Shown here in pieces: positions 25,167-59,214 of a DNA stretch of 64,000 nt (position 1 is the first letter of the stretch; the number at the start of each line of letters is the position of its first letter). The position numbers and the translations under genes are program-made. This DNA is from Amycolatopsis sp. 195334CR. GTDB lineage: Bacteria > Actinomycetota > Actinomycetes > Mycobacteriales > Pseudonocardiaceae. The stretch lies in NCBI RefSeq assembly GCF_017309385.1, contig NZ_JAFJMJ010000002.1:1240001-1304000 (forward strand), read 5' to 3'. A model generated the notes under the pieces. It was not told the origin of the DNA and ran no database searches. It saw only the letters and a list, made by a program, of their open reading frames with translations.

Positions 25167-27572
25167 GTGCTGAACAAAGATGAAAAAGATGAATCGGACA
25201 AGCCGTATGACAAGTCCATCCGGAAACGGCTGACCAGGACCGTCCTGATTCCCAGCGTGACCCTGCTGGTGCTGTGGACCGCGCTGTCCTCGTACTTCTT
25301 CATCAACGGGCTCTACGTGCGCCTGGTCGCCGCCTCGGTGCGCGAAGTGTCCATTCCGGCCGCCACCGCGCTGGCCGCCTTCCAGGAGGAACGCCAGACC
25401 GCCTTGCGGTACCTGGACAATCCGTCCGCCGGGCCGGCCGGGCTGGCCGAGAAGCAGCAGGCGACCGACGAGAAGCTGGTCGCGCTGCAGGCCGCCTTCG
25501 ACTCGACCATCTCCAGTGCCCCCGACGAGATCGCCACCAAGGTCAACGGGCTCAAGGGCCAGTTCGAGCAGCTCCCGGTGCTGCGCTCGCAGATCAACTT
25601 CCGGAGCATCGACCGGGCGCAGGTCAACGACTACTACAACGGCGTGCTGGACGCGGCGTCCAACCTGTTCGACACCCAGGCGCGCGTGGTGCCCGACGCC
25701 GAGGCCGCGCACGGCGGGGTCACCGCGACCACCGTCTTCCGCGCCGGCGACCTGATGTCGCGCGAGACCTCGCTGGTGTCCACCGCGTTCGCGGCCAAGG
25801 CGTTCGACCCGGACGACTTCGTCGAGTTCACCCAGCTCTCCGGGGCCTACCGCACGCAGCTCGCGCAGGTGGAACCGTTCCTGGACCCGGAAGTCCGCGC
25901 CCGGTACCAGGCGCTGACCACGAGCCCGGCGTGGGACCAGCTGGGCAACGCGGAGGAGGCGCTGGTCAAGCGCGGCCCGTGGGCCGGCGCGCAGGCGAAC
26001 AACCTGCCGGTCAGCGAAGCCGACTGGCAGAGCGCGGCGAACCAGGTCGCCAGCAGCCTCAACGACCTGTCCATCCAGCAGGCGGACAAGGTGTCCGCGG
26101 CGGCCATCGAGTCCGGTGACGCCCAGCTGCGCAACGCCATCATCGGCAGCATCCTGGCGCTGCTGGCCTCGCTCGCGGCGATCATCGTCGCGGTGCGGGT
26201 GTCGCGCTCGCTCGTCGACCGCGCGCTGATGACCCGCCTCGCCCGGCTGCGCGACGACTCGCTCGACCTCGCCCGCAACCGCCTGCCCCGCATCGTCGGC
26301 CGGCTCAAGAGCGGCGAACCCGTTGACCTGAAACAGGAACTGCCGCAGCTCGACCACGGCCGCGACGAGATCGGGCAGGTGGCGGAGGCGTTCAACGCCG
26401 CGCAGCTGACCGCGGTCAACGCCGCCGCGAGCGAGGCGAAGGCCCGCAGCGGTGTGCACAACGTGTTCCTCGGCATCGCGCACCGCAACCAGGTGCTGGT
26501 CCACCAGCAGCTGCAGATCCTGGACGAGATGGAAAGCCGCGAGGAGAACTCCACCCAGCTGGCCTCGCTGTTCCAGCTCGACCACCTCGCCGCCCGCGCC
26601 CGCCGCACCACCGAGAACCTGATCATCCTGGGCGGCAAGCAGCCGGGCCGCCGCTGGCGCAAGCCGGTGCCGCTGCTGGAGGTGCTGCGCGCGGCGATCT
26701 CGGAAACCGAGCAGTACGCGCGGGTCCAGGTCGAGCAGGTGGCCGACGTGGCCATCGTCGGGGTCGCGGTGGCCGACACCATCCACCTGATCGCCGAGCT
26801 GGTCGACAACGCGACCTCGTTCTCCCCGCCCGGTTCGCCGGTCGAGGTGACCAGCCGCCAGGTCGCCCGCGGCGTCGTGGTCGACGTGTCGGACCAGGGC
26901 CTGGGCATGAAGGACGGCGTGCGCCAGTGGGCCAACGAGATGATGGCCGAGGCGCCCGAGTTCGACGCGATGGCGCTGCGCGCCGACTCCAGCCTCGGCC
27001 TCTTCGTGGTCGCGCGGCTGGCGGCCAAGCTCGGCATCACCGTCACCTTCGACCCGTCCCGGTACGGCGGCCTCCGCGCCACCGTGCTCATCCCGGCGCA
27101 GCACCTGGCCGGGCAGGAGGCGGAGCACCACCAGGGCGAGGCGGAGTTCTCCGCCGCGCCGGAGGACAACGCCGTCCTCGCCTCGGTGGGTGCCCCGGCG
27201 CCCGCGATTTCCGCACAGGCGCAGGGAACCCCCGCACCGGCCACGCCCACGTCGAGCTCGTTCACCGGCCAGATCCCGTTGAAGCGCGACGTCAAGCCGA
27301 GGCCGTACCCGGCACGGGCCGCCGAAGCCGCACCCACCACCCCGCCGGCGTTCACCGAGGTGAAGCACGCGGCTCCGCCCGAGCCGCCACCCGCCGACGA
27401 CCGGCCGCGGCTGCCGCGGCGCGAGCCGCAGCAGAACCTGGTGGCCCAGCTCGAAAACGAACCGGACGACGACGTCCAGAGCACGGTGACGCCGGGGGAG
27501 GGCACCGCCCGCACCCTCGCCGCGTTCCACAAGGGCACCCGTCGCGGGCGCGACGGCGCCGGCGATTCGTAG
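25167..27572 (+). CDS. cvnA: Conservon sensor protein CvnA: nitrate/nitrite-sensing-type histidine-kinase-like protein
   Basis: The 801-aa membrane protein has TM1 at about 27-48 and an extracytoplasmic helical NIT-like sensor (about 60-310, with AAFQEERQTALRYL). TM2 at about 327-350 leads to a HAMP-like region, a degenerate phospho-acceptor helix (FLGIAHRNQVLVHQQ), a HATPase_c domain (AELVDNATSFSPPGSP, DQGLGM, SSLGLFVVARLA) and a Pro-rich disordered tail. Conservon CvnA proteins bind ATP and work with CvnB, C and D in a G-protein-like signalling complex at the membrane. The start is GTG at 25167, with CAGGAG upstream. It is the first gene of a complete four-gene conservon. Confidence 0.92.
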   Translation: MLNKDEKDESDKPYDKSIRKRLTRTVLIPSVTLLVLWTALSSYFFINGLYVRLVAASVREVSIPAATALAAFQEERQTALRYLDNPSAGPAGLAEKQQATDEKLVALQAAFDSTISSAPDEIATKVNGLKGQFEQLPVLRSQINFRSIDRAQVNDYYNGVLDAASNLFDTQARVVPDAEAAHGGVTATTVFRAGDLMSRETSLVSTAFAAKAFDPDDFVEFTQLSGAYRTQLAQVEPFLDPEVRARYQALTTSPAWDQLGNAEEALVKRGPWAGAQANNLPVSEADWQSAANQVASSLNDLSIQQADKVSAAAIESGDAQLRNAIIGSILALLASLAAIIVAVRVSRSLVDRALMTRLARLRDDSLDLARNRLPRIVGRLKSGEPVDLKQELPQLDHGRDEIGQVAEAFNAAQLTAVNAAASEAKARSGVHNVFLGIAHRNQVLVHQQLQILDEMESREENSTQLASLFQLDHLAARARRTTENLIILGGKQPGRRWRKPVPLLEVLRAAISETEQYARVQVEQVADVAIVGVAVADTIHLIAELVDNATSFSPPGSPVEVTSRQVARGVVVDVSDQGLGMKDGVRQWANEMMAEAPEFDAMALRADSSLGLFVVARLAAKLGITVTFDPSRYGGLRATVLIPAQHLAGQEAEHHQGEAEFSAAPEDNAVLASVGAPAPAISAQAQGTPAPATPTSSSFTGQIPLKRDVKPRPYPARAAEAAPTTPPAFTEVKHAAPPEPPPADDRPRLPRREPQQNLVAQLENEPDDDVQSTVTPGEGTARTLAAFHKGTRRGRDGAGDS

Positions 27573-27620: not shown

Positions 27621-28046
27621 ATGAACGAGTACGGGACCGCCAAACCCGATCTCAACTGGCTGCTCGACGACGTGGTGAACCGGGTCGTCGGCGCGCAGAA
27701 CGCCATCGTGCTGTCCGCCGACGGCCTGCTCATCGGCAAGTCGGCCGGGATGAGCAAGGACGACTCGGACCAGCTCTCCGCCATCGCCTCCAGCCTGCAG
27801 AGCCTGGCCAAGGGGGTGAGCAAGCAGTTCGCCCGCGGGGCCGTGCTGCAGAACATGATCGAGATGGAACTCGGCTACCTGTTCGTCTCCGCGGCCGGTC
27901 AGGGCGCCTGCCTCGCCGTGCTGGCGGGGGAGAACGTCGACGTGGAGATGATCGCCTACGAGATGAGCAGGCTGGTCAAACGCGTCGGCGACTACCTGAC
28001 CTCGGCTCCCCGTGAAGCGGCGCACGTGCTGCGCGAGGCCACGTGA
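27621..28046 (+). CDS. cvnB: Conservon protein CvnB: roadblock/LC7-domain protein
   Basis: The 141-aa protein has a roadblock/LC7 fold (WLLDDVVNRVVGAQNAIVLS, SADGLLIGKS, MIEMELGYLFVS). In conservons it binds the small GTPase CvnD and the sensor CvnA, probably as a GTPase-activating or scaffold component, like MglB in myxobacteria. It follows CvnA after 48 bp and overlaps CvnC by four bases (GTGA). Confidence 0.95.
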   Translation: MNEYGTAKPDLNWLLDDVVNRVVGAQNAIVLSADGLLIGKSAGMSKDDSDQLSAIASSLQSLAKGVSKQFARGAVLQNMIEMELGYLFVSAAGQGACLAVLAGENVDVEMIAYEMSRLVKRVGDYLTSAPREAAHVLREAT

Positions 28047-28414
28047 GCGGGGAGGACGGCTGGTACGACGAGGCGGCCGGGCCACTGGTCCGGCCGTACA
28101 CCATCACCAGCGGCCGAACTCCCGGCGAAAGCGCCAAACTGGACCTGTCCACGCAGGTGATGACGCTGCGGCAGGACCAGGAACCCACCGGGCTCGGCCC
28201 GGAGCACCTGGCGATCGTGCAGTTGTGCCGCAACCCGGTGTCGATCGCCGAGATCGCGGTCTACGTGAAGATCCCGCTCGGCGTGGTGCGCGTGCTGTGC
28301 GCGGACCTGATCGAGCGCGGGCTCGTGATCACCCGTTCCCCCACCCACCACCCGGCGCAGGCGCCGAACCTCGAAACTCTCCAGGCGGTTCTCGATGGCC
28401 TCATCAAGTACTGA
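28043..28414 (+). CDS. cvnC: Conservon protein CvnC: DUF742 protein
   Basis: The 123-aa DUF742 protein has the typical opening VRPYTITSGRT and a C-terminal winged-helix-like core (PVSIAEIAVYVKIPLGVVRVL, DLIERGLV). CvnC is a constant component of conservons with unclear chemistry, probably an adaptor between the CvnA/B sensor and CvnD. GTG at 28043 overlaps the CvnB stop, and its 3' end overlaps the CvnD start by 20 bp. Confidence 0.95.
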   Translation: MSGEDGWYDEAAGPLVRPYTITSGRTPGESAKLDLSTQVMTLRQDQEPTGLGPEHLAIVQLCRNPVSIAEIAVYVKIPLGVVRVLCADLIERGLVITRSPTHHPAQAPNLETLQAVLDGLIKY

Positions 28415-28985
28415 AGGTTCGGCGGCGGACAACGTCCCGACGCCGGTCAAGATCATCGTCGCCGGCGGGTTCGGCGCCGGCAAGACCACCATGGTCGGCT
28501 CGGTCAGCGAGATCCCGCCGCTGACCACCGAGGAGGTGCTCACCGAGGCGAGCGCCGGGGTGGACGACCTGTCCGGGGTGGAGCGCAAGCACACCACCAC
28601 GGTGGCGCTCGACTTCGGCCGGATCAGCATCTCGCCGCGGCACGTGCTGTACCTGTTCGGCACGCCCGGCCAGGCGCGCTTCTGGTTCATGTGGGACGAC
28701 CTCGCCCGCGGTGCGATCGGCACCATCGTGCTGGTCGACACCCGGCGGCTGGAGACCAGCTTCGCCGCCATCGACTTCTTCGAGCGGCGGAAGATCCCGT
28801 TCATCGTGGCGGTGAACTGCTTCGACAAGGCGCCGCGGTACACCCCGGAGGAGATCCGCGAGGCGCTCGTGGTGCCGGATCGGGTGCCGATCGTCATGTG
28901 TGACGCACGCGACCGCGATTCGAGCAAACTCGCGTTGATCCGCCTGGTGAAGCACGCGATGACGGTGTTGCCAGTACCAGCTTGA
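28395..28985 (+). CDS. cvnD: Conservon protein CvnD: small Ras/MglA-like GTPase
   Basis: The 196-aa GTP-binding protein has a P-loop GGFGAGKTTMVG (about 17-28), switch-region TTVALDFG, the DTRRLE segment and NCFD in the guanine-specificity position. It cycles between GTP and GDP under control of CvnB and completes the conservon. In Streptomyces, conservons affect development and antibiotic formation; here a link to the next genes at 29164 would be interesting but is unproven. Confidence 0.95.
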   Translation: MASSSTEGSAADNVPTPVKIIVAGGFGAGKTTMVGSVSEIPPLTTEEVLTEASAGVDDLSGVERKHTTTVALDFGRISISPRHVLYLFGTPGQARFWFMWDDLARGAIGTIVLVDTRRLETSFAAIDFFERRKIPFIVAVNCFDKAPRYTPEEIREALVVPDRVPIVMCDARDRDSSKLALIRLVKHAMTVLPVPA

Positions 28986-29147: not shown

Positions 29148-29164
29148 TGCTACTCTTTGGCGCG
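29148..29164 (+). promoter_or_regulatory. Extended -10 promoter for a leaderless transcript
   Basis: TGCTACTCT at 29148-29156 matches an extended -10 (TGN followed by TANNNT). Transcription would begin about seven bases downstream, at the GTG at 29164 with no ribosome site before it. A leaderless mRNA is therefore likely. No convincing -35 hexamer is needed with an extended -10. Confidence 0.5.
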
Positions 29165-30276
29165 TGGTCAATGGCTCGCCGGGGTTGTGCGATCAGGCAA
29201 GGGAAAACGGGAGCTATCCGGCGCGGGGCCGGTTGTACGGCGAATTCCTGTGTGGAGTGTGGGCCTCGGCGTGCGAGGCGCTCGAGGTCCCCGCGGACCA
29301 GGCGGCGTGGACCACGAGGTTGCTCGGCGCCGCGCTGCCCGCGTGGGCGGCCAACCGGATCGGGTCCACTCCGGACCAGCCGTCTTATGTTGCGGGGGAC
29401 GGGTTTCCGGCCGAGCTGTCGGTCAACTGGTCGGGCGGGCAACCGGAACTGCGGGTGCTGTTCGACTGCTTGGACGACGTGCAACACGGGCACAGCCTGA
29501 TCTCCGCCGCGGCGCAGGGGAATGCCCGCGACGGCATCTACGGCTTGTTCACCCCGGAGGCGGGCATGCCGTCGGCGGCGCCGTTGTGGCACTCGGTCGC
29601 CTGGCGGCCGTCGTCGCGGCTGGTGCACAAGACCTACTTCGGCTTGTACGACTGGCCGTTCGCCGAGCGGTACGCGGCGGTGGACGAGGCGATGGCCTGG
29701 CTGGGCCTGTCGAAGGCCTGGGAGCAGGCCCGCGCCCGGGTCGAGATCGCCGACGGGGAACGGGAAATCGAGTTCTTCGCGGTGGATCTGGCCGGGGAAG
29801 CCGATGCCAGGGTGAAGGTCTACTACCGCAACCACGGTGCCGACCTCACCGAGGTGAACCGGATCGCCGCGTCGGCGGCGCGTCACGACACCACGAGCGC
29901 GCTGGCCGCGTACCGGACCCTCGCCGGTTCCCGGACCGACGCCGGTGAGGCGGCGCTGAGCTGCCTCGCCTTCCGGTCCGGTGTGGACGGAGCCGACGAG
30001 TGCACCACCTACCTCCGGCTGACCGACCTGGCCGGCAGCGACCAGGAAGCGGTGGACCGCACCGCCACCGTGCTGCACCGCGAAGGCGTGGACCCCGCCC
30101 GGTTCCGCGCCCTCGCCGGGGCGCTGTCGCCCGGGTCGATCGAGGACAGCCGGGGGTTGCTGGAACTGGTCAGTTACCGGGCTTCGGGGCGGCGTGGTGA
30201 CCTCACGACGTACTTCCGGCTCCCGGTGTTCGAGAAAACCCCCGCCCGCCTGCTTTCGCCGGTTGATCTCGCGTAG
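29164..30276 (+). CDS. DMATS-type aromatic prenyltransferase
   Basis: The 370-aa protein has features of the dimethylallyltryptophan-synthase-like ABBA fold. The catalytic Glu equivalent is E84 in FPAELSVNW, the diphosphate-binding lysines are K156 in HKTYFGLYDWP and K218 in VKVYYRN, and the closing strands read GDLTTYFRLPVF. Such enzymes transfer a prenyl group to an indole or another aromatic ring without DDxxD motifs or metal. The size fits bacterial members. GTG at 29164 lies right after an extended -10, suggesting leaderless translation; longer in-frame starts (29050, 29071) lack a ribosome site. It leads a cluster with an HDO-like oxidase and a nucleotidyltransferase-fold protein. The acceptor substrate is unknown. 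Confidence 0.78.
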   Translation: MVNGSPGLCDQARENGSYPARGRLYGEFLCGVWASACEALEVPADQAAWTTRLLGAALPAWAANRIGSTPDQPSYVAGDGFPAELSVNWSGGQPELRVLFDCLDDVQHGHSLISAAAQGNARDGIYGLFTPEAGMPSAAPLWHSVAWRPSSRLVHKTYFGLYDWPFAERYAAVDEAMAWLGLSKAWEQARARVEIADGEREIEFFAVDLAGEADARVKVYYRNHGADLTEVNRIAASAARHDTTSALAAYRTLAGSRTDAGEAALSCLAFRSGVDGADECTTYLRLTDLAGSDQEAVDRTATVLHREGVDPARFRALAGALSPGSIEDSRGLLELVSYRASGRRGDLTTYFRLPVFEKTPARLLSPVDLA

Positions 30277-30324
30277 CGGCGCCGGGAAGATGATCATGCT
30301 TACCGCCACCGGAAGGAGCCGACC

Positions 30325-30951
30325 GTGAGCCACCAGGACGTGGACCGCATCGCCAGCCACAATGAGCAGCGGCAACAGGAATACGCCGCGTCGGCGCTGA
30401 TCCGCCTGCTGGCGGACGAGAACACCGGCGAGCCGACGAAAAAGGCGGTGCTGACCTACCTCCAGCCGTGGTCGAACGCGTTCCAGCGGATGATCAGCGC
30501 CCGGGTGACCTTCGAGTCGGACCCGCAGCTGCGCGCGCTCGCCCTGGAGCACCAGGAGGAGGAGATCGGGCACGACAAGATCCTGGCCAGGACGCGGGCC
30601 GAGGACACGCGGCTGGTGTGGGACCCGGTGATCGAGTCGGGGGCGTCGTGGTTCGTCGACCAGTTCGCGATCCTGCCGAGCGTGCAGCGCGCGGTGCTGG
30701 CGCACCTCGCGCTCGAGGCGGGGAGCCTGGTGCTGAGCCAGGCCGGGACCAAGGCGTTCCCCGATGACCCGTACTTCGACCTGCACGACGAGGCCGATGT
30801 GGAGCACCTGGAGATGGGCTACCGGTTGCTGCGGGAGCGCACCGACTGGACGGTGGACGAGCTGATCGCGGTGCTGGACCGGGCGTGGCAGGTGATCGGC
30901 GTGGTGTCGGACCGCATCGCCGAGTGCGCTCGCCAGGACACCGCGGCGTGA
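30325..30951 (+). CDS. Heme-oxygenase-like diiron oxidase (HDO) family protein
   Basis: The 208-aa all-helical protein has the metal-ligand layout of the HDO superfamily (relatives of UndA, BesC and SznF): E80-x2-H83 in EEEIGHDK, E131 in HLALEAGS, and D158-x2-H161 in ADVEHLEMG. Their spacing is close to UndA. Members use O2 and a labile diiron or iron site for C-C cleavage, desaturation or N-oxygenation. The start is GTG at 30325 after GGAAGGAG. It follows the prenyltransferase by 48 bp and overlaps the nucleotidyltransferase gene, so it may act on the same metabolite. The reaction is unknown. Confidence 0.8.
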   Translation: MSHQDVDRIASHNEQRQQEYAASALIRLLADENTGEPTKKAVLTYLQPWSNAFQRMISARVTFESDPQLRALALEHQEEEIGHDKILARTRAEDTRLVWDPVIESGASWFVDQFAILPSVQRAVLAHLALEAGSLVLSQAGTKAFPDDPYFDLHDEADVEHLEMGYRLLRERTDWTVDELIAVLDRAWQVIGVVSDRIAECARQDTAA

Positions 30952-31724
30952 CTGCGGAAGCTCTGGCGGTAGCGCGGGAAAGCGCGGAGGCGTACCGGGA
31001 GGCGTTGGGGGATCGGCTGCTCGCCGTGTACCTGCTGGGCAGCCTTTCCTACGGCGGTTTTTCCCCCGCGGTCAGCGATATCGACCTGGCTCTGGTGCTG
31101 GATTCCCCGGGGGATCGGGAAACCGTCGACGCGGTGTCGTCGGCGTTGCGGGAACGCGGTGGTTTCTACCTGAAGTTGTCCGTGTTCTGGGCGTCGCTGC
31201 CCGCCCTGCGCTCAGGCCGCGACGACGGCCGGTTCCCGGCGCTGGACCGGTTGGAACTGGCGGGGAACGGCCGGTTGCTGATCGGGGAGGAGGTCGCCGC
31301 CTCGGTGGCCCGGCCGGAGCCGGAGGAACTCTCCGCGGAAACCGCGCGCTTCGCGGTCGGTGTGCTGGCGACGGAGGAGGTGGTCGCGGAGTTCCACACC
31401 CCGCGCCGCCTGCTGTCCGATGCGGTGTGGTTCACGAAGGCTGTGCTGTTCCCGGTGCGTTTTCTTTGCAGCAACGTCAAAACCGGCGGCCGCGCGGCGA
31501 CGAACGATGAGGCGATCGAGTGGTACTTGTCGCTTGTGGACGCTCCAGCCAAGCCCCTGGTGCGCTCGGCCGCGGCGGTCCGTGCGGGTTCAGCTCTGCC
31601 CGATGCGGATTTCGCCGCCGATTTGCGGGCTTTGTACCGGTACTACATCGATGACCAACTCAACCGCCTGGACGATGCCGACCTCCGTGCTGCGTTCGAA
31701 CGGTGGCGGGCTCAGCTGACCTGA
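30948..31724 (+). CDS. Nucleotidyltransferase-domain protein
   Basis: The 258-aa protein has the minimal nucleotidyltransferase active site GS-x(n)-D-x-D in LLGSLSYGGFSPAVSDIDLAL (G31-S32, D44, D46), followed by a helical C-terminal half. This resembles aminoglycoside-adenylyltransferase-like enzymes, which transfer an NMP group to small molecules or proteins. GTG at 30948 overlaps the HDO gene stop (GTGA), showing translational coupling. It could adenylylate a product of the prenyltransferase/HDO locus or provide self-protection; both are inference. Confidence 0.82.
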   Translation: MTAEALAVARESAEAYREALGDRLLAVYLLGSLSYGGFSPAVSDIDLALVLDSPGDRETVDAVSSALRERGGFYLKLSVFWASLPALRSGRDDGRFPALDRLELAGNGRLLIGEEVAASVARPEPEELSAETARFAVGVLATEEVVAEFHTPRRLLSDAVWFTKAVLFPVRFLCSNVKTGGRAATNDEAIEWYLSLVDAPAKPLVRSAAAVRAGSALPDADFAADLRALYRYYIDDQLNRLDDADLRAAFERWRAQLT

Positions 31725-56846: not shown

Positions 56847-57757
56847 CAGCGCGCGGGGTTGGCGGCCGGGGACTGGGCGAGGTACCGCACCGCCTTGTCC
56901 ATGCTGCCGAGCTGCGACGGGTGGAACCGCGGCCGGAGGTACTTCGGGATCTCGGTGACGAAGATCGTCGCGTTCGGGATCACCTTGCGCCGGGTCGCGC
57001 CGAGCAGCTGCCACAGCCAGAACCGGCCCTTGCCCGGCGTCGGGTCCTTGCGGTACAGGTGGCCCGCGGTGGTCAGGAACAACACGGCGAGGGTGAAGCT
57101 GGCCAGCAGCGCGGTGCGCACGCGCCGCGCGTAGCTGCCGTCGACGTGCATGAAGGCGTCGAAGGCGACGTTGCGGTGTTCGACCTCCTCCGCGCCGTGC
57201 CAGCGGATCAGGTCCAGCATCGTCGGGTGCATGCCGAGGCGTTCCAGCTGGTCGGCGTTGAGCAGCCATTCACCGACCACCGCGGTGTAGTGCTCCATCG
57301 CGGCGAACAGGCCCAGCCGCTCGCACAACCACGCGTGCCCGGCCTTCCCGGTCAGGCCCCGGTTGCCGAGCACCTTGTCCACCAGCCATTCCATCTTGCG
57401 CGCCATCGGCTCGACGTCCAGCCCGAGCTTGGCCAGGTGGTCCCTGGCGCCCTCGTGCGACGCGGCGTGCGTGGCCTCCTGGCCGATGAAGCCGACCACC
57501 TCCTCCCGCAGCCGGGGGTCGGTGATCAGCGGCAGCGCCTCGGCGAGCGTGTTCGACATCGCGCGCTCGCCCTCGGGCAGCACCAGGTGCATCACGTTGA
57601 TCACGTGCGTGGCCATCGGCTCGCCGGGGATGTAGTGCATCGGCACGCCGTCCCAGGAGAAGTGCACGTCGCGCGCGGCGATCGCGTGCGCCTGCCCGGT
57701 GTAGCGCCGCGCGCCGCGCGGGTCGACCACCGGGTTCCGGCCGAATCCCCGTTTCAT
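56846..57757 (-). CDS. PF10118-family 'metal-dependent hydrolase', ferritin-like diiron protein
   Basis: The 303-aa protein carries the metal ligand pairs of PF10118: QEATHAASHEGA (about 93-104) and GAEEVEHRNVAFD (about 192-204). A hydrophobic hairpin follows near 218-240 (ALLASFTLAVLFLTTAGHL), suggesting membrane attachment. The E/H pattern is that of ferritin-like diiron proteins rather than a proven hydrolase. Being next to a ferredoxin reductase, it could be an oxygenase or desaturase. The ATG overlaps the stop of the monooxygenase gene (ATGA). Confidence 0.88.
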   Translation of the reverse strand: MKRGFGRNPVVDPRGARRYTGQAHAIAARDVHFSWDGVPMHYIPGEPMATHVINVMHLVLPEGERAMSNTLAEALPLITDPRLREEVVGFIGQEATHAASHEGARDHLAKLGLDVEPMARKMEWLVDKVLGNRGLTGKAGHAWLCERLGLFAAMEHYTAVVGEWLLNADQLERLGMHPTMLDLIRWHGAEEVEHRNVAFDAFMHVDGSYARRVRTALLASFTLAVLFLTTAGHLYRKDPTPGKGRFWLWQLLGATRRKVIPNATIFVTEIPKYLRPRFHPSQLGSMDKAVRYLAQSPAANPAR

Positions 57758-59214
57758 GCGATCCTCGCTCCCTGCTCGGTGCGGTGGTAGTCGGCCAGGT
57801 CCACGGCCGCGGTGCGGCGGCGGAACTGGCGGTTGAACCCGGGGTAGAACACGAAGTTGCGCCCGGAGTCGTCGAGGTAGTAGCTGCGGCAGCCGCCGGT
57901 GTTCCACACCGAGCCCCGCAGGCCGTGGTCCACTTCGCGCACCCAGGCGTCCTGGGCCGCCTGGGTGACCTCCAAAGTGGACAGACCGTGCCGGTCGAGT
58001 GCGCGCAGGCAGCTGAGCACGTAGGCGACCTGCGCCTCGATGGTCACCACCTGCGAGGTGTAGACCACCGAATTCGGGCCCAGCAACAGGAAGAAGTTCG
58101 GGAAGCCGGCCACCGTGGTGCCGAGGTAGGCGCGCGGACTTCCGTTCCACGCCTCGCCGAGGGTACGGCCGCCCCGGCCGCGGATCCGGCCGAACCCCGG
58201 GTGGTCGGTCATCCGGAACCCAGTGCCGAAGACGATCGTGTCGACCTCGTGCTCGACGCCGTCGGCGGTAACGATGCCGGACGGCCGCACCTCGCGGATC
58301 CCTTCGGTGACCACGTCGGTGTTCGGCTGGGTCAGCGCGGGGTAGTAGGCGTTGGAGAACGTCGGGCGCTTGCAACCGAACGCGTAGGACGGGGTGAGCC
58401 TGGCGCGCAGCAGGGGATCGCGCACCTGGCGGCGCAGGTGCGCGCGGCTGACGAGTTCCATGCCCTTGAGCAACGCGGGTCGCCGCACGAGTCCGGGCAC
58501 CAGCGCCTCCTGCACCAGGTCCAGTCCGGTCCTGGCGAGGCGCTGCGCGGCGGGGAAGCGCTCGAACAGCCGTCCGGTGATCGGCCGGTCGGGGTGCGGC
58601 ATGATCCAGGTCGGCGTGCGCTGGAAGACGGTGAGCCGCGCGGCCGCCGGCTGTAGGCGCGGCACGATCTGCACGGCCGAGGCGCCGGTGCCGATCACCG
58701 CGATCCGGCGCCCGGCCAGCTCGTGCTCGTGGTCCCATGCGGACGAGTGGAACGTGGTGCCGCCGAAGGTGTCCAGGCCGGGAAGGTCCGGTGTGGACGG
58801 TTCGCTGAACGGCCCGATCGCGCCCACCAGCACGTCGGCCTCGAACTCGCCGCGATCGGTGCGCACGCGCCAGAACCGGGCGGACTCGTCCCAGGTCGCG
58901 TCCAGCACTTCGTGGCGCAGCCGCAGGTGGGGCCCGATCCCGAAGTCATCGGCGCAGCGGCGCAGGTAGTCGTGGATCTCCGGCTGCAGCGGGTAGAGCC
59001 GCGTCCAGCGCGGGTTCGGCGCGAAGGAGAACGAGTACAGGATGGACGGGATGTCGCACTGGGCACCCGGGTAGTCGTTGACCTGCCAGGTGCCGCCCAC
59101 CTCGGCGGCGCGCTCCAGCACCACGAAGTCGTCGACCCCGGACCGCTTGAGCGCGATCGCGGTGCCGAGACCGCCGAACCCGGCGCCCACGATGGCGACG
59201 CGAACTCTGGACAT
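57754..59214 (-). CDS. Baeyer-Villiger-type flavin monooxygenase
   Basis: The 486-aa FAD/NADPH enzyme has the first Rossmann motif GAGFGGLG (about 9-16), the Baeyer-Villiger fingerprint FxGxxxHxxxW seen as FGGTTFHSSAW, and a second Rossmann motif GTGASA. It inserts oxygen next to a ketone or oxygenates a heteroatom, using NADPH and O2. ATG at 59214 lies six bases after a -10 element and lacks a ribosome site, so it is probably leaderless. It starts a five-gene operon resembling mycobacterial mymA-type clusters. Confidence 0.92.
   Translation of the reverse strand: MSRVRVAIVGAGFGGLGTAIALKRSGVDDFVVLERAAEVGGTWQVNDYPGAQCDIPSILYSFSFAPNPRWTRLYPLQPEIHDYLRRCADDFGIGPHLRLRHEVLDATWDESARFWRVRTDRGEFEADVLVGAIGPFSEPSTPDLPGLDTFGGTTFHSSAWDHEHELAGRRIAVIGTGASAVQIVPRLQPAAARLTVFQRTPTWIMPHPDRPITGRLFERFPAAQRLARTGLDLVQEALVPGLVRRPALLKGMELVSRAHLRRQVRDPLLRARLTPSYAFGCKRPTFSNAYYPALTQPNTDVVTEGIREVRPSGIVTADGVEHEVDTIVFGTGFRMTDHPGFGRIRGRGGRTLGEAWNGSPRAYLGTTVAGFPNFFLLLGPNSVVYTSQVVTIEAQVAYVLSCLRALDRHGLSTLEVTQAAQDAWVREVDHGLRGSVWNTGGCRSYYLDDSGRNFVFYPGFNRQFRRRTAAVDLADYHRTEQGARIA

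What the first reader, a model, noticed from the sequence alone, without database searches (positions are those of the whole stretch)
29164..31724. DMATS-type prenyltransferase + HDO diiron oxidase + nucleotidyltransferase: a compact candidate biosynthetic system
The sequence shows the DMATS catalytic set (E84, K156, K218), an HDO ligand pattern (E80-x2-H83, E131, D158-x2-H161) with spacing near UndA, and a GS..DxD nucleotidyltransferase site. The genes lie in order on one strand, with a 48-bp gap and a GTGA overlap, after a complete conservon. From family knowledge, DMATS enzymes prenylate indoles and other aromatics, and HDO enzymes do unusual O2 chemistry. I know of no described pathway with this trio. 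Inference: prenylation of an aromatic, oxidative cleavage or N-oxidation, and nucleotidylation for activation or self-protection.
Basis: partly seen in the sequence, partly recalled or inferred. Interest (0 to 1): 0.82.

Follow-up and report, generated by a model that had tools for sequence, protein, structure and literature searches.

The report
Third type of prenyl-tryptophan gene cluster
Next to a bacterial G-protein-like switch lies a conserved set of three enzymes that probably attaches a prenyl group to tryptophan and then remodels it with a di-iron oxygen enzyme, a new variant of a known family of small indole-making gene clusters.

Summary
The trio is real and more than chance. All 30 distinct loci collected (window plus 29; six named genera) carry DMATS–HDO–NTase in that order on one strand; 29 of 30 have a CvnABCD conservon in the stretch read, in three layouts. 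In 7 of 29 loci DMATS and HDO are one fused ORF; HDO and NTase overlap by 4 nt in 28 of 29. The HDO model (pLDDT 91) has the heme-oxygenase-like fold; of the 50 hits shown, the best TM-score is to AetD, which turns (bromo)tryptophan into indole nitrile (TenA and UndA rank above it by E-value). All six diiron ligands are invariant in 29 of 29.

The DMATS here is the sister clade of the Type B-like set, with HDO+NTase in the FMO's place: a third type ("Type C"). Related conservons carry different cassettes.

Best reading: prenylation of L-Trp, then O2-dependent remodelling of its side chain by the HDO. Substrate, product and NTase role are inferred. New variant of a known kind; no description found in the papers searched.

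The parts
25167..27572 (+). CvnA: sensor-kinase-like protein of the conservon (NIT + HATPase_c)
   Evidence: Pfam; a conservon lies beside the trio in 29 of 30 loci
27621..28046 (+). CvnB: roadblock/LC7 protein of the conservon
   Evidence: Pfam Robl_LC7 E 2.8e-22
28043..28414 (+). CvnC: DUF742 protein of the conservon
   Evidence: Pfam DUF742 E 1.6e-31
28395..28985 (+). CvnD: small GTPase-like ATP/GTP-binding protein of the conservon
   Evidence: Pfam ATP_bind_1 E 5e-34
29164..30276 (+). DMATS-type indole prenyltransferase (370 aa, GTG start); E84, K156, K218 invariant in 29 of 29
   Evidence: PF11991 above cut-off, PDB 4yl7 E 4e-23, start supported by relatives, invariance, tree
30325..30951 (+). 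HDO: heme-oxygenase-like diiron oxidase/oxygenase (208 aa)
   Evidence: AF2 model pLDDT 91.2; Foldseek to TenA, UndA, CADD, AetD; ligands invariant 29 of 29
30562..30573 (+). HDO core helix 1 ligands E80-x2-H83
30715..30717 (+). HDO core helix 2 ligand E131
30784..30807 (+).
   Evidence: same H-x3-[DE]-x2-H pattern as AetD
30948..31724 (+). NTase: nucleotidyltransferase of the AadA/ANT(3'')(9) fold (258 aa), start overlaps the HDO stop (GTGA)
   Evidence: Foldseek AadA E 5e-8; GS-x11-DxD invariant 29 of 29, 4-nt overlap 28 of 29

Best explanation
This is a third type ('Type C', my label) of the actinobacterial conservon-linked prenyl-tryptophan cassette. Step 1 (inferred from sister Type B): the DMATS transfers a dimethylallyl group to the indole ring of L-tryptophan. 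Step 2 (inferred from fold, ligands and gene replacement): the diiron HDO binds the amino and carboxylate groups of prenyl-tryptophan at Fe1, activates O2 and remodels or cleaves the side chain. It takes the place of the FMO (Type B: aldoxime, then nitrile) or the tryptophanase (Type A: prenylindole, then carbaldehyde). The most specific guess is an AetD-like one-enzyme conversion to prenyl-indole-3-carbonitrile. Step 3 (weakest): the NTase transfers a nucleotide to a hydroxyl, oxime or similar group of the product or intermediate, to activate it for dehydration or to mask it. Expression or signalling is tied to the adjoining conservon, a G-protein-like relay. Shown here: the genes, the HDO and NTase folds (models), invariant sites, strict co-conservation, DMATS-HDO fusions and conservon linkage. 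Not shown: substrate, regiochemistry, product, NTase reaction.
For: Trio in the same order in 30 of 30 loci, conservon near in 29 of 30, in three layouts. DMATS-HDO fused with a short linker in 7 of 29, a state that needs 3 changes on the tree. HDO subfamily seen only in this cluster: 14 of 297 family genomes, 2 of 394 class genomes, all with DMATS. DMATS tree: A, B and C are separate sides, C next to B. FMO in 19 of 19 B loci; a ~455-aa gene in the tryptophanase place beside DMATS in 18 of 20 distant loci, 4 of 4 tested being PF01212. SCO7467/7468 act on L-Trp and 5-dimethylallyl-Trp (PMC3617294). HDO fold and 3H/3C ligands, AetD with the highest TM-score of the 50 rows shown (0.82); AetD and SktA are HDOs whose substrates are substituted tryptophans. 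Cassettes change behind kindred conservons: two Type A conservons of the window's genus nest among the Type C ones (AU p 0.014 against one C clade), and Type A locus L159 shares its conservon (CvnB 98%, CvnD 96%) and flanking genes (94%, 90%) with Type B loci but not the DMATS cassette.
Against: No biochemical data. The closest solved DMATS relatives (MpnD, TleC) do not accept L-Trp, although the closest genomic relatives are the Type B-like set. AetD is not found by sequence profile, and in Foldseek its E-value (1.1e-3 at best) ranks below TenA, UndA and CADD; its lead is in TM-score only. AetD's helix-1 Fe2 ligand is Asp, here Glu; ligand geometry in the model was not measured. The link of my B loci to SCO7467/7468 rests on gene content, not on a sequence comparison. 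B's own support in the DMATS tree is 87 (quick search; four B rows under half filled). The NTase has an invariant Ser (S78) where I recall AadA's catalytic Glu87 (Foldseek titles mention E87Q mutants), so its activity is not assured. The one-clade test was chosen after seeing the tree, and the Type A loci of the window's genus share no flanking gene with Type C loci, so that swap is not shown to be at one site.
Confidence: 0.6

Rival explanations
1. The HDO acts on prenyl-tryptophan but not to a nitrile: it N-oxygenates the alpha-amine (aldoxime or hydroxylamine, same outcome as the Type B FMO) or fragments the side chain to a prenylskatole, as SktA does with 5-bromo-Trp.
For: HDOs with the same or similar ligand sets do different reactions on similar substrates, e.g. 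AetD and SktA, HrmI and BesC (PMC13108848 passages). The Type B counterpart is an N-oxygenating FMO. An oxime would give the NTase a hydroxyl to act on.
Against: The N-oxygenase SznF, and RohS, carry an extra Glu ligand on auxiliary helix 2. By spacing, that helix (36-63) has the invariant aromatics W49 and F53 here and no invariant Glu (E64 lies just past its end), as in AetD; HrmI shows that 3H/3C can also N-oxygenate.
Confidence: 0.4
2. The NTase is not a biosynthetic step but self-protection or regulation: it masks the bioactive product by nucleotidylation, or modifies a protein of the unit.
For: The fold is that of drug-modifying ANT enzymes. Stand-alone homologues 39-43% identical were called in 13 of 16 fetched loci, and none of the 16 holds a DMATS, HDO or conservon match at E<1e-10, so the family has a life of its own.
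Against: Translational coupling to the HDO (4-nt overlap in 28 of 29) and presence in 30 of 30 loci suggest a part in the pathway itself.
Confidence: 0.35
3. The DMATS prenylates another aromatic (for example a dipeptide, indolactam or phenol) and the HDO acts elsewhere, e.g. supplies or trims that aromatic.
For: Nearest solved structures MpnD and TleC are indolactam-specific. Of the well-conserved positions listed, 19 differ in C from both A and B, e.g. N-P in A and B is G-L in C at 160-161.
Against: No NRPS or other aromatic-supply gene recurs beside the trio in the loci read (gene calls by start sequence, not scanned one by one). B and C share residues absent from A (R222, R271, R285, R352, W61, W89, W186, H241), and the characterised Types A and B both use L-Trp.
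Confidence: 0.15
4. The 208-aa protein is a metal-free TenA-like enzyme or an inactive relic.
For: Many of the best Foldseek hits by E-value are TenA proteins; Pfam support is below cut-off.
Against: All six diiron ligands are invariant in 29 of 29, including the 58%-identical Streptacidiphilus copy; it is the most conserved protein of the trio (identity to the window 58-92%, against 46-80% for the NTase and 41-88% for the DMATS).
Confidence: 0.04

Closest known systems
Type B conservon-DMATS-FMO clusters (S. coelicolor SCO7467/SCO7468; PMC3617294)
   Same: Conservon beside a DMATS plus one oxygen-using enzyme; compact unit in actinobacteria; the Type B-like loci fetched hold the sister clade of the window DMATS
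   Different: FMO replaced by HDO plus NTase; DMATS-HDO gene fusions; product unknown here
Type A conservon-DMATS-tryptophanase clusters (IptA; PMC3617294)
   Same: Conservon and DMATS; two Type A conservons of the window's genus fall inside the Type C conservon clade
   Different: PLP lyase instead of HDO; DMATS of another clade
AetD nitrile synthase (aetokthonotoxin pathway; PMC11611611, PMC10654658)
   Same: HO-like diiron fold, 3H/3C ligands with [DE]-x2-H ... E ... H-x3-[DE]-x2-H; acts on ring-substituted tryptophan
   Different: No sequence similarity found by profile; Glu for Asp on helix 1; AetD's partners are halogenases (recalled), not a prenyltransferase
AadA / ANT(3'')(9) aminoglycoside adenylyltransferases
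   Same: Two-domain fold and GS...DxD site of the NTase
   Different: 17-18% structural identity; the strand that I recall carrying AadA's catalytic Glu has an invariant Ser here; antibiotic substrate not implied

Membership tests
DMATS-type aromatic prenyltransferase (PF11991) | Profile match over the curated cut-off | tested here: met
   33.6 bits against 25; the six-frame genome search missed it; NCBIfam TIGR03429 60.7 bits, below its cut-off of 163.85
DMATS-type aromatic prenyltransferase (PF11991) | Catalytic Glu and diphosphate-binding Lys/Arg, tyrosine shield | tested here: met
   E84, R97, K156, R216, K218, Y220, Y283, Y350 conserved across A, B and C (Y283 89% in A); E84 aligned to MpnD Glu89 (residue number counted by hand). 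Which of the others match TleC's named residues was not worked out one by one
DMATS-type aromatic prenyltransferase (PF11991) | ABBA barrel fold | not tested
Heme-oxygenase-like diiron oxidase/oxygenase (HDO) | Seven-helix HO-like fold | tested here: met
   Model pLDDT 91.2 with eight helices; 27 PDB hits at E<=0.001, TenA, UndA, CADD; AetD TM 0.82 at E 1.2e-3
Heme-oxygenase-like diiron oxidase/oxygenase (HDO) | 3 His/3 carboxylate ligands on core helices 1-3 | tested here: met
   E80, H83 (helix 67-90), E131 (119-144), H154, D158, H161 (149-171), invariant 29 of 29; geometry not measured, coordinates not available
Heme-oxygenase-like diiron oxidase/oxygenase (HDO) | Bound diiron and O2 reactivity | not testable with these tools
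   Needs purified protein
AetD-type nitrile synthase | Sequence or profile relation to AetD | tested here: not met
   Profile searches of the PDB sequences (AetD has PDB entries) did not list it at E<=10; so it may work like AetD but is not filed as one
Conservon (CvnABCD) | Sensor kinase-like, roadblock, DUF742 and GTPase genes in order | tested here: met
Type A/B conservon-DMATS cluster | Conservon next to indole prenyltransferase | tested here: met
   29 of 30 loci
Type A/B conservon-DMATS cluster | Tryptophanase (A) or FMO (B) as partner | tested here: not met
   HDO and NTase stand in that place in 30 of 30 loci; no match to the two tryptophanases of the window's genus in 28 Type C loci
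ANT nucleotidyltransferase | GS-x(9-13)-D-x-D in the NTase fold | tested here: met
   the Pfam profile PF01909 stays just below its cut-off (20.1 against 21)
ANT nucleotidyltransferase | AadA-type catalytic Glu | tested here: inconclusive
   The strand reads LSVFW with invariant S78; no residue-level structure alignment was available

The most novel reading that the evidence does not exclude
DMATS-HDO is a two-step synthase, in some genomes one polypeptide, that turns L-tryptophan straight into a prenyl-indole-3-carbonitrile, a convergent answer to the FMO/aldoxime route of Type B; the NTase finishes or masks the product. The three cassette types are interchangeable outputs of one class of G-protein-like conservons, so prenyl-indoles would be the dedicated signals of those conservons.
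Probability: 0.2. Interest if true: 0.82.

Novelty: new variant of a known kind. Interest (0 to 1): 0.63.

Why it matters
It adds a third enzymatic solution to a widespread but little-studied actinobacterial pathway, and offers the first HDO that I know of that is naturally fused to a prenyltransferase, which points directly at its substrate. It also makes a standing question testable: the cassette behind kindred conservons changes (tryptophanase, FMO or HDO) while the conservon stays, so the output class of these G-protein-like systems can be asked for directly.

Tried and rejected
Six-frame search of the own genome with PF11991 found nothing, not even the window gene, so protein queries were used instead. 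Sequence and profile searches for an HDO relative in the PDB gave only chance-like hits (DARPins, symplekin, MBP fusion, P450). Pfam also gave PF19138 (TbsP_N) for 18 of 29 HDO rows at E<=0.1 (best 0.0044), which I take as chance, since the model has the HO-like fold. My first gene caller started DMATS at 29257; relatives support 29164. The caller also missed DMATS in L078 and L065, so these two are absent from the trees (67 of 69 rows); tblastn shows that both have it, and L078 is in the tree. Genes flanking the seven-gene unit in the window recur only in the close relative G260 among the 13 loci and were set aside. NTase homologues elsewhere gave no functional hint (whose printout was cut; recounted). 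In the NTase search 13 of the 14 Type C genomes turned up; G295 did not (not drawn, or missed), though its NTase is seen. Considered and rejected: chance adjacency (30 of 30); HDO as a relic (ligands invariant). Paper searches for this combination: heme oxygenase-like + diiron + prenyltransferase + tryptophan, 0 papers; dimetal oxid + prenyltransferase, 0; conservon + diiron, 0; conservon + prenyltransferase, 1, Ozaki 2013. A looser search gave 776 papers, of which 10 were listed and none of those 10 held the term 'iron-containing redox enzyme'. The library holds only open-licence papers.
Full report
OBSERVATION. The three ORFs, the 48-bp gap and the GTGA overlap are as described. The DMATS assignment is firm: PF11991 33.6 bits against a cut-off of 25 and nine distinct prenyltransferase sequences of the PDB at E<=1e-5, the best being 4yl7 (MpnD by recall; the residue numbers agree with PMC4786772). 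NCBIfam's DMATS model is below its cut-off. The HDO cannot be recognised reliably by sequence (PF14518 E 0.013, below cut-off; PDB profile searches gave only chance-like hits). A structure model from 29 relatives (pLDDT 91.2) matches heme-oxygenase-like proteins: 27 PDB chains at E<=0.001, TenA, UndA and CADD among them. Of the 50 rows shown the highest query TM-score is AetD 8zvg_A (0.82, rmsd 3.0, E 1.2e-3), followed by AetD 8ji2_A 0.79 and UndA 4wwj 0.78; by E-value TenA, UndA and CADD chains rank above AetD. The ligand pattern is E80-x2-H83 (helix 67-90), E131 (helix 119-144), H154-x3-D158-x2-H161 (helix 149-171), all invariant in 29 of 29. AetD has D76-x2-H79, E140 and H172-x3-E176-x2-H179 (PMC11611611 and PMC10654658, passages). 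The NTase is just below Pfam's cut-off (20.1 against 21 bits); its model (pLDDT 89.1, pTM 0.75) matches AadA/ANT(3'')(9) (E 5e-8, TM 0.67).

CO-OCCURRENCE. In 297 genomes of the family the HDO was found in 14, of three genera; all 14 had a close DMATS, and the 13 fetched besides the window all carried DMATS, HDO, NTase and CvnABCD within about 7 kb. In 394 genomes of the class the HDO profile matched 2, the window's genome and G487; G487 has the whole trio (42, 59 and 47% identical) with a diverged conservon about 3.4 kb off. A pattern-based scan of the 84,980-species collection gave 24 named loci: Amycolatopsis, Kibdelosporangium, Pseudonocardia, Plantactinospora, Actinoplanes, Streptacidiphilus and one record titled Rhodococcus rhodnii. 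All 24 have DMATS-HDO-NTase in order; 23 have a conservon in the stretch, L099 (Streptacidiphilus fuscans) has none within 8 kb. Nine of the 13 unnamed loci are the same records as named ones (equal contig lengths), which leaves 30 distinct loci: window, L045, L047, L054, L055, L077-L100 and L149. L149 was not in the 29-row alignments. The trio is present in 30 of 30 and the conservon in 29 of 30.

ARRANGEMENT. The conservon lies upstream on the same strand (Amycolatopsis including the window, Pseudonocardia, Actinoplanes), downstream on the same strand (L077, L080, L083), or downstream and convergent (L078, L094, L095, L149). So the association survives rearrangement and is not mere inertia of gene order. 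The HDO stop and NTase start overlap by 4 nt in 28 of 29; L098 has a 2-nt gap. In 7 of 29 loci (L047, L077, L078, L080, L083, L094, L095) DMATS and HDO form one uninterrupted ORF of 577-608 codons with a short linker; in L149 they are separate genes. On the DMATS tree the fused state needs three changes, two of them forced by starred branches. An internal start codon remains near the HDO start in the fused genes, so separate translation of the HDO is not excluded.

THE KNOWN FAMILY. Ozaki et al. 2013 (PMC3617294; abstract, outline, passages and the full Discussion seen) describe indole prenyltransferase clusters that all carry a conservon: Type A with tryptophanase, Type B with an FMO. SCO7467 prenylates L-Trp at C5 and SCO7468 converts the product to an aldoxime, which presumably an unidentified enzyme dehydrates to 5-dimethylallylindole-3-acetonitrile. 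The next DMATS clade to the window's (34-42% identity, 19 loci) fits Type B by gene content: FMO in 19 of 19 loci, conservon in 18 of 19 (L076 lacks it). Some 120 further genomes had a DMATS match (153 less 14 and 19); from 19 of them, and from a second match in G063, I fetched 20 loci. Of these 18 have a conservon and a ~455-aa gene in the tryptophanase place (4 of 4 tested are PF01212; the other 14 recognised by their start sequence only); L152 and L155 have neither. The DMATS tree (67 rows, quick search, unrooted) separates A, B and C, with C next to B (B+C 97, C 99, A 100, B only 87).

CASSETTE SWAP. On a tree of CvnA, and of CvnA+B+D for 29 loci (24 Type C, 5 Type A), the conservons of two Type A clusters of the window's genus (L165, L166; Amycolatopsis by its named members) fall inside the Type C conservon clade; holding the 24 Type C rows together is rejected at p-AU 0.014. 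I chose that test after seeing the first tree, and these two loci share no flanking gene with 28 Type C loci. A clearer case lies between A and B: Type A locus L159 has a conservon 98% (CvnB, CvnC) and 96% (CvnD) identical to those of Type B loci and flanking genes up to 94% and 90% identical, yet carries tryptophanase and a DMATS only 33% identical; L153 is similar. Each of the 14 Type C genomes showed one DMATS match only (which scores at most six candidates a genome). Micromonosporaceae Type C clusters use a distant conservon lineage (CvnA 44-45%). Together this suggests that different enzyme cassettes are exchanged behind related conservons.

MECHANISM. Shown: genes, predicted folds, conserved sites, linkage, fusion. 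Inferred: L-Trp as substrate, from the sister types and from residues shared by B and C but not A; prenyl-Trp as HDO substrate, from the fusion, from the gene-for-gene replacement of FMO/tryptophanase, and from AetD and SktA, HDOs that act on substituted tryptophans (PMC13108848 passages). AetD and other substrate-triggered HDOs have a hydrophobic residue in place of the extra Glu on auxiliary helix 2; here the invariant W49 and F53 have the same mutual spacing, and nearly the same distance to the helix-1 ligands, as AetD F44 and F48. This is spacing, not a superposition. The nitrile outcome is a guess, at about one in four. The NTase reaction is open: the family keeps GS-x11-DxD but has an invariant Ser on the strand where I recall AadA's catalytic Glu. 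Stand-alone homologues (39-43%) were called in 13 of 16 fetched loci, none of which holds a DMATS, HDO or conservon match.

NOVELTY. I found no paper joining an HDO with a prenyltransferase or a conservon (open-licence library only). It works like, and is related to, the Type A/B conservon-DMATS clusters but fails their partner-gene test, so I call it a new variant of a known kind. It may work like AetD but is not filed as an AetD.

Noticed in passing
L159:313-13999 against L058-L073: A Type A cluster (tryptophanase + DMATS) sits between a conservon (CvnB-D 96-98% identical, CvnA 74%) and flanking genes (up to 94%) that elsewhere enclose a Type B cluster (FMO + DMATS): an apparent cassette replacement at one chromosomal site.
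   Followed up: partly
L077 (JOAA01000020.1; same contig as G093): The record is titled Rhodococcus rhodnii, but the genome falls in the window's family (genus code g27, as Kibdelosporangium aridum) and its cluster groups with Kibdelosporangium, so the title is probably wrong.
   Followed up: partly
L134, L136-L138, L140-L148: A family of stand-alone nucleotidyltransferases (39-43% identical to the window NTase) in Pseudonocardiaceae; in L136 and L140 it sits beside genes that look like peptidyl-tRNA hydrolase and ribosomal L25 (by start sequence only). No function known to me; the one scanned (L137) has no Pfam match at E<=0.001.
   Followed up: partly
L155:20-3249: A DMATS without conservon directly follows an NRPS-like gene (AMP-binding, carrier and thioesterase domains), reminiscent of an indolactam-type pathway.
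   Followed up: partly
L098:13402-15985; L070:15129-17000; L071:6-3531: Second, different conservons lie within a few kilobases of the DMATS-linked conservon.
   Followed up: no
L058-L062, L066-L069, L072, L073: These 11 Type B-like clusters lie beside 3-hydroxyacyl-CoA dehydrogenase, glutamine-synthetase-like, peptidase C26 and aldehyde dehydrogenase genes, most also an amino acid permease (Pfam for L061), perhaps only a shared site, since Type A loci L153 and L159 show part of the set.
   Followed up: partly
window 57754-59190 (-): A flavin-monooxygenase-like gene (PF00743 E 2e-11), 22-28% identical to Type B FMOs, far from the DMATS; not linked to the finding.
   Followed up: partly
own genome: The six-frame PF11991 search returned no match although the window gene passes the PF11991 cut-off with hmmscan, so such a negative does not show absence.
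   Followed up: yes
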